Below, one piece after another: positions 7,717-11,080 of a stretch of 35,096 nt of DNA. Source of the stretch: Candidatus Shapirobacteria bacterium (lineage in GTDB: Bacteria; Patescibacteriota; Microgenomatia; UBA12405); assembly GCA_018062705.1 (NCBI GenBank), contig JAGORQ010000010.1, positions 1 to 35,096 on the forward strand, written 5' to 3'. The notes below the pieces were generated by a model that did not search any database, was not told the DNA's origin, and saw only the letters and a program-made list of their open reading frames with translations. Each line of letters starts with the position of its first letter. Position 1 is the stretch's first letter. The position numbers were made by a program, and so were the translations under genes.

Positions 7717-9681
7717 ATGACCGAAACAATAATCAATTTGACCACGAACCCATCAGTTGATAACCCACCTATTACCCCCCCTCTCAAATCAAATAAAAAA
7801 TCTAAGTTCCTCACATTTTTGATAAATTTCTTATCAATAGTTGTTATCTTAGGCACTATCACCGCAGTTTCTGGTTTTTTCCTAGTTTATTTACCTGCCA
7901 AAAATTTCTCCATTCAAGTTTTAGAACTCAAAAATTCAATTGACCCAATTAAAACCGCCATCAACGACAAAGATCTCAAAGCTCTCAAAGTTCAATTAGA
8001 CAACCTCCGTAGCAAAATTAAATTAGTCGGCAATCGCTATCAATATTTTGCCTTTGCCCAAACACTACCAATTGCCCGAGATTACTACCAAGACGGATTA
8101 ACTTTCCAAAAAATGGCCAACGATGCCCTTGATACTGGTGATATCTTAATTAAAGCTATCGAGCCATATCAGGATTTTCTTGGCTTTAAAGGATCAAGTA
8201 CTGATAGTGGTAAAACCACTGAGGATCGAATCACTTTTTTGACACAATCAATTGAAGGTCTTTTGCCCCACCTCGATTCTATTGAAAAAAAGATAGTAGA
8301 TATTGACACTGCACTCAACACCATAAACATTGATCGATATCCAGAAAATTACAAAGATATTGCAATCCGACAAGAATTTAATAAGGCCAAAGAAACCCTC
8401 GCCGAAGTTCGTAAATTAGTTACCGACGGCAAACCTATTTTGACCAAAACTTCTTGGTTGCTCGGCAAAGACAAGCCTCGCAATTATCTGATTGTATTCC
8501 AAAACGATGGTGAACTTCGACCAAGCGGTGGTTTTTGGACTGCCTACGCCTCAATCAAGATGGATAAAGGTAAGGTGATTCCTGGTGGTGCTTCAAATAT
8601 CTATGATATTGACGACAAACTTGCCAGCACTATTCCCGCCCCTCGAATTATCAAAAGTTACCACATCAACGTACCTTACCTCAATCTTCGCGACAGTAAT
8701 TTATCACCAGATTTTCCAACCGATGCGAAAATTTTCTTGAGCAAATATTATCAAGCCATGGGCCAAAAAGACAAATTCGATGCTGTTATCGCCATCGACA
8801 CACAAGTTTTAATTGACATGGTCAAAACCATGGGTAAATTAGATACCCGTGTCGGCACATTTACTACCGAACCTGATAAACGTTGTGACGGTTGCCCCAA
8901 AATAATTTACGATCTTGAATGGATTTCTGGTCGTCCCCGAAATTATATCGAGAAGAATCGAAAAGATTTTCTAGCCCCACTGATGCATGCACTACTGGCC
9001 AACGCTATGGGTTCTGACAAAACCAAGTTACCAATTTTAGGTGAAGCATTTTTCAGCAATTTGATGGAAAAACACATCATGGTTTTCTTCCCAGACACCG
9101 ACATGCAGACCGCCGCCGAAAAAGCCAATATTGCTGGTAAAATTGTTGCTGTCGACAACAGTACAGATTATTTCCATCTCAATGATGCTAACTTCGCTTC
9201 AGCCAAAAGCAATATCTTTATCCGCCAAAAAATTAAACATGAAATAAATGTTAAAAACACCGTTGTCGAACATAAAGTGACCGTCACCTACACCAACCCC
9301 AGCCCAGGCTCCAACTGTAATTTAGAAAAAGGCGATCTTTGCTTAAATGCACCAACTTACCGCAACTTGTTCCGATTTTACGTCCCCACAGGCTCTAAAC
9401 TAATCAAGATGACCGGCACCGAAGTTGATCCGGTCCAATACGAAGAACTTGATAAACAGGTTTTTGAAGGGTTCTATGGTAACAAATATCCACTTTATGC
9501 CAAAAACAGTCTTAAGACGTCCGTTCAATATACCAGTAGTGTACCAGCCTCCAAAAACTACACCTTATTGCTTCAAAAGCAACCTGGCACCAAACCCATG
9601 GACTACGAAATTTGGGTTAATGGCAAAAAAGACCAATCTTTTGCTTGGTCAACCGACAAAACCATAAAATTAAGTTTTTAA
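7717..9681 (+). CDS. DUF4012 domain protein, membrane anchored
   Basis: A 654-residue protein with a short cytoplasmic N-terminus, one strong transmembrane helix (about residues 30-58) and a large extracytoplasmic part. It matches DUF4012 by FQNDGELRPSGGFWTAYASI (about residues 262-281) in the middle of the domain. The region before it (about 60-240) is helical and charged, and the C-terminal part is beta-rich. DUF4012 proteins occur in Gram-positives and commonly in Microgenomates next to polysaccharide genes; their function is not established. The gene follows the sugar transferase by 28 bases and its stop overlaps the recO start (TAATG). Confidence 0.85.
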   Translation: MTETIINLTTNPSVDNPPITPPLKSNKKSKFLTFLINFLSIVVILGTITAVSGFFLVYLPAKNFSIQVLELKNSIDPIKTAINDKDLKALKVQLDNLRSKIKLVGNRYQYFAFAQTLPIARDYYQDGLTFQKMANDALDTGDILIKAIEPYQDFLGFKGSSTDSGKTTEDRITFLTQSIEGLLPHLDSIEKKIVDIDTALNTINIDRYPENYKDIAIRQEFNKAKETLAEVRKLVTDGKPILTKTSWLLGKDKPRNYLIVFQNDGELRPSGGFWTAYASIKMDKGKVIPGGASNIYDIDDKLASTIPAPRIIKSYHINVPYLNLRDSNLSPDFPTDAKIFLSKYYQAMGQKDKFDAVIAIDTQVLIDMVKTMGKLDTRVGTFTTEPDKRCDGCPKIIYDLEWISGRPRNYIEKNRKDFLAPLMHALLANAMGSDKTKLPILGEAFFSNLMEKHIMVFFPDTDMQTAAEKANIAGKIVAVDNSTDYFHLNDANFASAKSNIFIRQKIKHEINVKNTVVEHKVTVTYTNPSPGSNCNLEKGDLCLNAPTYRNLFRFYVPTGSKLIKMTGTEVDPVQYEELDKQVFEGFYGNKYPLYAKNSLKTSVQYTSSVPASKNYTLLLQKQPGTKPMDYEIWVNGKKDQSFAWSTDKTIKLSF

Positions 9682-10241
9682 TGAATCGGCATCGCGCCGG
9701 AACAGGCATTGTACTCAAAAAAACCGGGCTAAACGAAGCGGATTACCTCCTAACTCTTTTAACTGAAGATTATGGCAAGATTACTTGTCTTGCCAAAGGT
9801 GTAAAAAATATTAAAAGTCACCGTCTAGGTAGCTTGCAAATAGGTAACGTTATCAAATACAGCACCTATTCCAAAAATAATTACTCATGGTTGTCAGAGT
9901 CAATCACCATTTTTCCTTTTCTCCAAACCGAAAAATCACTGACTCAGCTCAACCTGCTTTTTTATATTTTAGAGATTATTAATTTATTTATAGCTGAAGA
10001 TCAAAACATTGACGGCATCTACCCAGTAGTTGAGAAACTGATTAAAGCTATTAGTCTCAATCGTTTTGGTGATTTGATCACCCAAGAAATTGCCCTCATT
10101 GACACTCTTGGTTTTGGTACACCACCAGAAATTCACTCGGCTCACGAATCAAACGATCTCCCCGCCACCCAAAAACTAATTAAACAATATCTCGAATCTA
10201 TCATCGAAAAACCATTACAAAGCTCTAAATTATTTAAATAA
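9681..10241 (+). CDS. recO: DNA repair protein RecO (short form)
   Basis: RecO helps load RecA on SSB-coated DNA with RecR. The N-terminal OB-fold is recognisable: GIVLKKTGLNEADYLLTLLT, then DYGKITCLAKGVKN and a Ser-Leu-Gly element before the helical C-terminal domain. I start at ATG 9681, overlapping the previous stop. At 186 residues it is shorter than the roughly 240 of typical RecO and has no C-terminal Cys zinc site, as seen in reduced genomes. Its last 19 codons (10185-10241) are duplicated in diverged form at 10896-10952, on the far side of a small cassette; see the findings. Confidence 0.85.
   Translation: MNRHRAGTGIVLKKTGLNEADYLLTLLTEDYGKITCLAKGVKNIKSHRLGSLQIGNVIKYSTYSKNNYSWLSESITIFPFLQTEKSLTQLNLLFYILEIINLFIAEDQNIDGIYPVVEKLIKAISLNRFGDLITQEIALIDTLGFGTPPEIHSAHESNDLPATQKLIKQYLESIIEKPLQSSKLFK
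10185..10241 (+). repeat. recO 3' end, left copy of a direct repeat flanking a cassette
   Basis: These 57 bases encode QYLESIIEKPLQSSKLFK plus stop. Extended by three bases on the right, 48 of 60 positions match the copy at 10896. Most differences are silent or conservative, so both copies were under selection as the end of a RecO protein at some time. This copy is the one now joined to the complete gene. Confidence 0.75.
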
Positions 10242-10254
10242 TCGCAAAATTTGA

Positions 10255-10260
10255 TATACT
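10255..10260 (+). promoter_or_regulatory. Possible -10 element for the folded RNA
   Basis: TATACT lies 13 bases after the recO stop, on the strand of the folded element at 10322. A second option is TTGACA at 10270-10275 with a weak -10 (CTAACT) 17 bases later. Either would give a transcript running into the folded element and antisense to the 3' end of the nuclease-like ORF. There is no direct evidence of transcription. Confidence 0.3.
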
Positions 10261-10321
10261 ATTACAGTATTGACAATTTGTAGTAAAAGTATCTAACTTA
10301 ATAATTAAAATAAATGTAATT

Positions 10322-10429
10322 TTTTGCGGGGCTGAAATGCAGAAAGGCTCTACTGCGGAGCGTGAGTAGGTCCGAAAGGATATCGAAAATGCTACGATGA
10401 AGGCAGGTCGCCCTTCCAGCTCCACAAAA
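10322..10429 (+). ncRNA. Strongly folded RNA-like element of unknown family
   Basis: A closing stem pairs 10322-10334 (TTTTGCGGGGCTG) with 10417-10429 (CAGCTCCACAAAA), 12 of 13 pairs including one G-U. Inside are four hairpins: CTACT/AGTAG with a 10-base loop, GTCC-GAAA-GGAT with a GNRA tetraloop, ATCG/CGAT with a 9-base loop, and GAAGG/CCTTC with an 8-base loop abutting the closing stem. The GAAA loop favours the plus strand. It overlaps the last 38 bases of the minus-strand ORF. It lacks the AGCAG loop of SRP RNA, the T-loop of tRNA/tmRNA, and a tag reading frame. I do not recognise the family. Confidence 0.5.
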
Positions 10430-10865
10430 GTCTATATTTGTCCAAATAACTTTCTTTACCTACTCTCAACCTAAAAGCAGTCACTATAAAATTCGTTTCG
10501 TCTTGTCCTTCATCAAAGTTTGATTCACAGGTTTCCAATGAACATAGATACATCACTTCTTGGATAATTTTCGTAAAAACATAATTTCCTTTTTTACCAG
10601 ATCTATTTTTATAAATACTATCCGGATATTTTACTAAATGCACCACATTTCTCAACAAAAAATCAAATTCCTCGGCTGGTTTTTTGTCATACATATGTTT
10701 CATTGACTTCGCCGACCAATACACTTTCTGCGATTTTAAATTAAGAGACTTTTTAACAGCCTTTGTTATTGTACATAAAAACAGAATTCTGTCCGAAACC
10801 ATTGCGTTCTCACCAGTATCTTTTATAAACAACTTAAAAAATTTTATCGCCCCGCAATTTTCCAC
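10392..10865 (-). CDS. Small protein resembling BECR-fold (barnase/EndoU/ColicinE5/RelE) nucleases
   Basis: 157 residues, the only minus-strand gene in this part of the window. Conserved-looking stretches are VYWSAKSMKHMYDKKPAEEF (about 48-67), KYPDSIYKN, YVFTKII, NFIVTAFRL and the C-terminal LLWSWKGDLPSS. This pattern (a K-H motif, P-D-x-I-Y, F-x-K, V-T-A-F-R, then W-x-W) recalls phage-type BECR toxin nucleases, from memory and not verified by search. The start is GTG 10865, preceded by an AGGAG Shine-Dalgarno on the minus strand (10876-10880), which is unusual for this window and hints at foreign origin. Its 3' end is inside the folded element at 10322-10429. No antitoxin-like protein gene is adjacent. 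Confidence 0.65.
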   Translation of the reverse strand: MENCGAIKFFKLFIKDTGENAMVSDRILFLCTITKAVKKSLNLKSQKVYWSAKSMKHMYDKKPAEEFDFLLRNVVHLVKYPDSIYKNRSGKKGNYVFTKIIQEVMYLCSLETCESNFDEGQDETNFIVTAFRLRVGKESYLDKYRLLWSWKGDLPSS

Positions 10866-10895
10866 ATAAAAATAATACTCCTATATTTATTACAA

Positions 10896-10952
10896 AACTA
10901 TCTCAAATCAATCATCAAAAAACCTCTCCAAAGTTCCAAGTTGTTTAAATAA
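10896..10952 (+). pseudogene. Remnant of a recO 3' end, right copy of the direct repeat
   Basis: Read in frame this gives NYLKSIIKKPLQSSKLFK then TAA, against QYLESIIEKPLQSSKLFK at the end of the intact recO: 15 of 18 residues are identical, with synonymous differences at most codons. The frame stays open upstream to about 10863, but no RecO sequence is recognisable there beyond a few residues. The glyS promoter follows directly, so this copy probably marks the original recO-glyS junction. Confidence 0.75.
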
Positions 10953-10954
10953 TC

Positions 10955-10963
10955 TGTTATAAT
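10955..10963 (+). promoter_or_regulatory. Extended -10 promoter of glyS
   Basis: TGTTATAAT is an extended -10 box. The same nine bases occur before the MurE-like gene (15871), rplU (32231) and the tRNA gene (34397). Transcription from here would start near 10970, just before the T-box leader. Confidence 0.65.
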
Positions 10964-10969
10964 TCTCTA

Positions 10970-11080
10970 TCAAAGTAGGGGATTGGCTCCCTACTTCCAA
11001 ATAGGTAAAAGTGAAAAATGAGGGTGGAACCGTCCTGAGTTTATCGAAGGACCCCTTAAAATTATATAATTTTAAGGACT
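10970..11080 (+). promoter_or_regulatory. Ultrashort glycine T-box riboswitch leader of glyS
   Basis: The T-box sequence AGGGTGGAACCG is at 11021-11032; TGGA fits the U-C-C-A end of tRNA-Gly. Upstream, a single perfect 8-bp stem (AAGTAGGG 10973-10980, CCCTACTT 10989-10996) carries loop GATTGGCT with a GGC glycine codon at 10985-10987, a plausible specifier. The long Stem I and stems II/III of classic T-boxes are absent. A 24-base perfect palindrome (11054-11077) buries the AAGGA ribosome binding site (11074-11078) before ATG 11081, and there is no U-run, so control is probably translational. AGGG 11021-11024 could pair with CCCT 11053-11056 and open that hairpin. Confidence 0.75.
11032..11052 (+). 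repeat. REP-like palindromic repeat, copy in the T-box leader
   Basis: GTCCTGAGTTTATCGAAGGAC forms a hairpin with stem GTCCT/AGGAC. A second copy with the same ends (GTCCT-AG and TCGAAGGAC) lies at 30236-30257 inside ileS. Palindromes of the form CCTTCGA-N-CTCAGG are, from general knowledge, widespread dispersed repeats in bacterial genomes. Here it sits between the T-box motif and the hairpin over the ribosome binding site. Confidence 0.65.

What the first reader, a model, noticed from the sequence alone, without database searches (positions are those of the whole stretch)
10185..10952. recO 3' end duplicated in diverged form around a small cassette
The last 19 codons of intact recO (10185-10241) recur at 10896-10952 with 48 of 60 bases and 15 of 18 residues matching, in the same frame and ending at the same stop, mostly with silent differences. 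The 654 bp between carry a nuclease-like ORF and a folded RNA-like element but no recombinase. This looks like an element that targets the end of recO and supplies its own replacement tail, or a recombination with a relative that left the native tail as a scar before the glyS promoter.
Basis: partly seen in the sequence, partly recalled or inferred. Interest (0 to 1): 0.85.

Follow-up and report, generated by a model that had tools for sequence, protein, structure and literature searches.

The report
Mobile nuclease-RNA module beside displaced recO tail
Between the recO and glyS genes of a tiny-genome bacterium sits a small mobile module, a predicted RNA-cutting enzyme facing a highly conserved folded RNA whose gene overlaps it, and the odd second copy of the recO ending is most likely the original gene ending pushed aside when the module was imported.

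Summary
A 61-nt recO 3' end recurs 711 nt downstream (80% identity, 15/18 residues, same stop). Its 12 differences keep the protein far better than decay in place would (P=0.00045).

The 650 bp between is more interesting than the repeat. It is a two-part module found in about 34 other loci, mainly Patescibacteria. One part is a PBECR3-type RNase (fold and H...T active site supported). The other is an opposing structured RNA: 27 of 32 base pairs covary, and about half have a recognisable own promoter. The 3' ends of the two genes overlap, so one DNA stretch encodes both the conserved protein end WSWKGDxPSS and an RNA hairpin. The RNA resembles Rfam's skipping-rope RNA. Independently, 9 of 12 phage skipping-rope loci also have a PBECR nuclease alongside.

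The cassette does not specifically target recO or gene ends: 29 of 31 sites lack a tail repeat. The downstream tail keeps native context (glyS promoter, T-box-like leader) and shows decay at conserved Glu sites, so it is most likely the displaced native end, left by one-sided recombination. An unrelated 6.8-kb insertion in another Patescibacterium leaves the same scar. That the RNA restrains the nuclease is inferred, not shown.

The parts
9681..10241 (+). recO (186 aa), intact, with the functional (upstream) tail
   Evidence: Pfam RecO_N E=4.6e-15; matches recO of 91/96 genomes
10183..10243 (+). upstream copy of the 61-nt tail repeat; ends at the stop codon plus 2 nt
10270..10299 (+). sigma70-like promoter of the RNA (TTGACA ...)
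   Evidence: pattern present upstream of 17/32 homologous RNAs, 0.75 expected
10320..10434 (+). structured RNA, skipping-rope-like, closed by a long P1 stem around three hairpins
   Evidence: R2 125.8 bits; 27/32 pairs with double changes over 37 sequences; Rfam RF02924 only 14.3 bits, below cut-off
10392..10865 (-). PBECR3-type RNase gene (157 aa, GTG start), convergent with the RNA and overlapping its 3' hairpin (10392-10434)
   Evidence: 31-53% identity to 23 homologues, 22 of the 24 hit PF18812; profile E=3e-11; AlphaFold pLDDT 89.5; Foldseek TM 0.71-0.73 to phage MuF/polyvalent proteins
10894..10954 (+). downstream copy of the recO tail: probable displaced native tail (scar)
10955..11080 (+). 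native recO-glyS spacer: TATAAT promoter and T-box-like leader (GGGTGGAACC)
   Evidence: same elements precede glyS in relatives L013, L020, L024, L026
11081..12400 (+). glyS, glycyl-tRNA synthetase
   Evidence: Pfam anticodon and class II core domains; order recO-glyS conserved

Best explanation
The interval is a mobile two-component module: a PBECR3-family RNase plus a structured, independently promoted RNA encoded convergently, with their 3' ends overlapping. It most likely works as a toxin with an RNA partner that restrains it (or that it processes), carried as a selfish or defence cassette. It arrived between recO and glyS by recombination with DNA of a close relative that already had the module next to recO. 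Homology in recO anchored the left side. The right side joined without matching homology inside the recipient's recO 3' end, so the recipient's own tail was pushed 711 nt downstream and is now decaying. Shown: the module, its conservation, RNA covariation, nuclease fold and active site, wide dispersal, and the native context of the downstream tail. Inferred: toxicity, RNA control, and the one-sided recombination.
For: Module: RNA plus overlapping convergent nuclease in L133, L134 and L137 and in nearly all of about 34 loci. Covariation 27/32 pairs, score 0.49 against 0.22 shuffled. Promoter 17/32 against 0.75 expected. PBECR3 in 22/24 members. [quoted passage not shown] 9/12 phage skipping-rope loci have a PBECR gene beside the RNA, against 1 in about 65 mostly chance-matched comparison contigs, that one being L123 itself. 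The viral pairs occur in both relative orientations, which argues for an RNA-protein rather than an antisense link. Import with displacement: coding-constrained divergence, native context of the downstream tail, and the same scar topology around an unrelated 6.8-kb insertion in G254, polarised by relatives. A published precedent for displaced 3' ends, proposed to arise by homology-facilitated illegitimate recombination, is PMC5361080. A recO-cassette-glyS arrangement exists in G534.
Against: No congeneric genome is held, so neither recO tail could be placed on a tree; gene-by-gene similarity ranks showed no clear breakpoint. No donor with an intact recO-cassette of the right type was found. 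In G346 the tail repeat predates the cassette. No experiment shows toxicity or RNA inhibition. The window RNA is far below the Rfam skipping-rope threshold, and the cross-hits of model R2 to viral RNAs are no better than chance hits.
Confidence: 0.62

Rival explanations
1. Site-specific integration at gene 3' ends by a recombinase acting in trans (for example the Xer-type recombinase), with the gene tail as attachment site; the cassette carries a diverged attP tail that restores recO.
For: Repeats end at the stop codon at recO and at the ICMT-like gene; serial cargoes with tail copies at the ICMT-like locus; every tested genome has at least one tyrosine recombinase; dif modules are a precedent.
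Against: 29/31 cassette loci lack a tail repeat; the recO and ICMT tails share no evident core; no recombinase is in the cassette or in the 6.8-kb cargo; the two recO tails are only 80% identical, with a longest common run of about 12 nt.
Confidence: 0.22
2. Tandem duplication of the recO end in this lineage, decayed in place, with the cassette inserted between the copies.
For: Gives a direct repeat in the same orientation.
Against: Differences are mainly synonymous; P=0.00045 for 3 or fewer amino-acid changes under neutral decay.
Confidence: 0.06
3. The cassette is an old resident of the recO-glyS junction and the tail scar came from a later replacement of recO alone.
For: G534, with recO only 29% identical, has DUF4012-recO-cassette-glyS too.
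Against: About 25 family relatives with a readable junction lack the cassette there, recO lying close to glyS or to other genes; the G534 relatives L191 and L192 have recO abutting glyS.
Confidence: 0.1
4. The RNA is an antisense (type I-like) regulator of the nuclease mRNA through the overlapping 3' ends rather than a partner of the protein.
For: The 3' ends overlap convergently in the Patescibacteria loci.
Against: In five phage loci the RNA is on the same strand as the nuclease, so no antisense pairing is possible; conserved loops and compensatory changes maintain an RNA fold.
Confidence: 0.15

Closest known systems
skipping-rope RNA (Rfam RF02924)
   Same: Closing stem around three hairpins, GA(G/A) before hairpin 1, GATG before the last hairpin, last loop similar to AAUGUCGC; neighbouring PBECR nuclease
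   Different: 14.3 bits against a cut-off of 36.7; invariant GAAAGGCTCTAC core; gene overlaps the nuclease gene; Patescibacteria rather than phage
PBECR3 (PF18812), phage BECR-fold RNases of PMC5512222
   Different: N-terminal extension and C-terminal LLWSWKGDxPSS end; chromosomal cassette; the window member itself is below Pfam detection
Type III toxin-antitoxin systems (ToxIN)
   Same: RNase gene paired with a structured RNA
   Different: Convergent and overlapping, single RNA, no short tandem repeats, different RNase family (own knowledge of ToxIN)
Homology-facilitated illegitimate recombination scars (V. cholerae T6SS immunity arrays, PMC5361080)
   Same: New module inserted after a conserved anchor, old 3' end shifted downstream
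   Different: Here only a 61-nt gene tail remains and the cargo is an RNA-nuclease module
Xer/dif (pdif) modules
   Same: Small gene pairs moved without their own recombinase
   Different: No dif-like flanks noticed; the repeat is a gene tail

Membership tests
skipping-rope RNA RF02924 | Covariance-model score above gathering cut-off | tested here: not met
   14.3 vs 36.7 bits; genome-wide no hit
skipping-rope RNA RF02924 | Same overall layout of stem and hairpins with conserved motifs | tested here: inconclusive
   Alignment agrees at diagnostic motifs; phage-based model R1 hits homologue L133 at E=0.0013 but not the window; R2 gives chance-level cross-hits to phage RNAs
PBECR3 nuclease | Profile similarity | tested here: met
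   22/24 aligned homologues at E<=0.01; window itself none alone, linked by iterated profile E=3e-11
PBECR3 nuclease | H in N-terminal helix and S/T in a late strand of a BECR fold | tested here: met
   Invariant H39 in helix 34-43, T111 in strand 104-114; fold matches phage MuF/polyvalent proteins
PBECR3 nuclease | RNase activity | not testable with these tools
   needs assay
Type III toxin-antitoxin | Tandem-repeat RNA upstream of the toxin on the same strand | tested here: not met
   Single opposing RNA in Patescibacteria; one phage locus (L123) has two tandem RNAs
Type III toxin-antitoxin | RNA binds and inhibits toxin protein | not testable with these tools
   needs co-expression
Integrative element at gene 3' end | Encoded or nearby integrase | tested here: not met
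   None in the interval; PF00589 hits of G000 lie on other contigs
Integrative element at gene 3' end | Same attachment core at several insertions | tested here: not met
   29/31 loci without tail repeat
Homology-facilitated illegitimate recombination scar | Homology on one side only, displaced native 3' end downstream of the insert | tested here: inconclusive
   Downstream tail is native by context; donor unknown; breakpoint not resolved
Xer/dif module | dif-like sites flanking the module | not tested
   Only the tail repeat was found by the repeat search; no dif consensus scan was run

The most novel reading that the evidence does not exclude
Skipping-rope and related RNAs are the RNA half of a widespread toxin-like system with PBECR RNases, shared by phages and Patescibacteria. 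In the Patescibacteria one DNA stretch encodes both the end of the RNase and a hairpin of its cloverleaf-like RNA partner, possibly a decoy for an enzyme of the tRNA-cleaving kind.
Probability: 0.55. Interest if true: 0.88.

Novelty: new variant of a known kind. Interest (0 to 1): 0.78.

Why it matters
It gives an RNA class for which I found no published function a consistent protein partner and therefore a directly testable role (RNA control or decoy of a phage-type RNase). It also shows such a module moving through Patescibacteria, which have tiny genomes and few described mobile elements. The displaced-tail scars at recO and at the ICMT-like gene offer a simple, searchable footprint of how these bacteria import cargo.

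Tried and rejected
Window ORF alone against Pfam, PHROGs, NCBIfam and PDB sequences: nothing significant. Single-sequence ORF scans of viral and genome contigs and of 96 genomes: no homologue; it was reached only through the RNA and the PBECR3 profile. DNA search of the cassette in relatives: chance-level matches only. Pattern scans 27 and 28 for the last RNA hairpin were almost all chance, except L123, which opened the case. OxyS hit rejected as chance (21 vs 75 bits). tmRNA/tRNA resemblance of the P1 ends considered: ARAGORN finds none there. Gene-affinity test for a recombination breakpoint: uninformative. Translated search for decayed tails at the other cassette sites: noise apart from the window and L172 in the output shown. 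Tail remnant in G534: nothing convincing. L129 matches to R2 judged chance. PDB fold search: only weak hits, best a toxin-antitoxin complex 7vd7 (E=0.045).

Full report
OBSERVATION. The repeat is real: 10183-10243 and 10894-10954, 61 nt, 80%. Flank alignment scores 38 against a shuffled maximum of 20. The 12 differences in the 57-nt coding part fall 4/0/8 on codon positions, and only 3 of 18 residues change. Random substitution would change about 7.9 residues (P of 3 or fewer = 0.00045). So the two tails most likely diverged as working recO ends, in different genomes, before they came to lie together.

WHICH TAIL IS NATIVE. In family relatives recO is often followed within 10-35 nt by a TATAAT box and glyS, or by a short T-box-like leader. 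The downstream copy has exactly that sequel (TCTGTTATAATTC, then leader and glyS), so it stands in the native place. It has E>K at two positions where about 30 relatives have E, and a few D or Q, never K. The upstream copy belongs to the intact gene. The downstream copy is therefore best read as the displaced, decaying native end. No congeneric genome is held, so this cannot be confirmed on a tree, and gene similarity ranks were uninformative.

WHAT LIES BETWEEN. Rfam at relaxed threshold gave a sub-threshold skipping-rope RNA hit at 10327-10424 (14.3 bits, cut-off 36.7). A pattern of its last hairpin found phage contig L123, which has two genuine skipping-rope RNAs (58 and 49 bits) and an opposing PBECR3 nuclease gene (E=3e-20). 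A scan for bona fide skipping-rope RNA gave 12 phage loci, all above cut-off. Nine have a PBECR gene directly beside the RNA: four convergent, five on the same strand. Among the comparison contigs (4,842 ORFs, mostly chance pattern matches) only L123 has one. L140, L142 and L147 are the exceptions.

THE PATESCIBACTERIA FORM. A PF18812 scan of 380 genomes of the phylum gave three relevant loci (L133, L134, L137). Their nucleases align with the window ORF up to the shared end LLWSWKGDxPSS, and an RNA with the invariant core GAAAYGCAGAAAGGCTCTACTGCGG runs antisense over that end. A covariance model of four sequences found 12 genomes, and a pattern scan found 26 loci, nearly all Patescibacteria plus two Bacteroidetes MAGs (some loci are the same genome reached twice, and two of the 12 are weak). 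Nearly all have the opposing nuclease; the exceptions are the weakest RNA matches, such as L159 and L160. On 37 aligned matches (three of them on the opposite strand of true ones), 27 of 32 pairs have changes on both sides, 91.8% of cells pair (78.1% shuffled), and sliding the structure by one column lowers the covariation score from 0.49 to 0.11. The 5' half of the RNA lies outside the ORF, so coding cannot explain its conservation. A promoter-like pair of boxes precedes 17 of 32 RNAs (0.75 expected).

THE NUCLEASE. 22 of 24 aligned members hit PBECR3. The model is confident (pLDDT 89.5) and matches phage MuF/polyvalent proteins (TM 0.71-0.73). An invariant H39 in the helix 34-43 and T111 in a late strand match the PBECR active site described in PMC5512222. 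Toxicity is inferred from the family.

IS IT A GENE-END TARGETING ELEMENT? Thirty-one cassette loci with flanking DNA were tested for flanking repeats: only the window and L172 (G346) have a gene-tail repeat. About two thirds have no gene 3' end facing the RNA side. In G346 the repeat is the last 28-29 nt of an ICMT-like gene, but relative G374 has the same repeat pair around a different cargo (a methyltransferase gene), so it predates the cassette. In G254 the same gene has a diverged tail, then a 6.8-kb insert (P-type ATPase, lipoproteins, ABC transporter by inspection of the ORFs; no recombinase seen), then a native-type tail directly before its native neighbour: the same topology as recO, with unrelated cargo. 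So displaced tails appear to be a general mark of cargo import rather than a property of this cassette. Homology-facilitated illegitimate recombination is a known route to such scars (PMC5361080). A recombinase acting in trans remains possible.

A SECOND recO-glyS CASSETTE. G534, with recO only 29% identical to the window's, has DUF4012-recO-cassette-glyS, while its relatives L191 and L192 have recO abutting glyS. This shows that recO-cassette donors exist. With about 33 loci a coincidence is not excluded.

MECHANISM AND VERDICT. Shown: a conserved, dispersed RNA-nuclease module and a second recO end in native context. Inferred: toxin-like RNase, RNA partner as inhibitor, decoy or substrate, import by one-sided recombination. 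The phage pairs occur in both orientations, which favours RNA-protein action over antisense. The RNA is not a member of skipping-rope by the Rfam criterion, but its partner gene and layout make kinship likely. No open paper linking skipping-rope RNA to PBECR was found; the paper I remember as the original description of the motif is not held, so prior mention cannot be excluded.

Noticed in passing
L188 585-1887 (G534): Second genome with the RNA-nuclease cassette exactly between recO and glyS, with recO only 29% identical to the window's.
   Followed up: partly
L246 1860-9382 (G254): ICMT-like gene tail present three times: at the gene, after a 6.8-kb insert (P-type ATPase, lipoproteins, ABC transporter) and, decayed, after the next gene; a cargo hot spot.
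   Followed up: partly
L123 8065-8233: Two tandem skipping-rope RNAs opposing one PBECR3 nuclease on a phage contig.
   Followed up: no
window 10955-11080: T-box-like glyS leader (GGGGATTGGCTCCC ... GGGTGGAACC) that Rfam does not report even at E of 5.
   Followed up: no
alignment A6: Two nuclease homologues match PADLOC candidate defence family PDC-M04B (best E=8.8e-6).
   Followed up: no
L067 1501-1567: A skipping-rope RNA at the Rfam cut-off (36.7 bits) in a genome of the window's class, without a PBECR gene in its 3-kb locus.
   Followed up: partly
L164 and L168: The Patescibacteria-type cassette in two contigs labelled Bacteroidetes MAGs: transfer between phyla or misbinned contigs.
   Followed up: no
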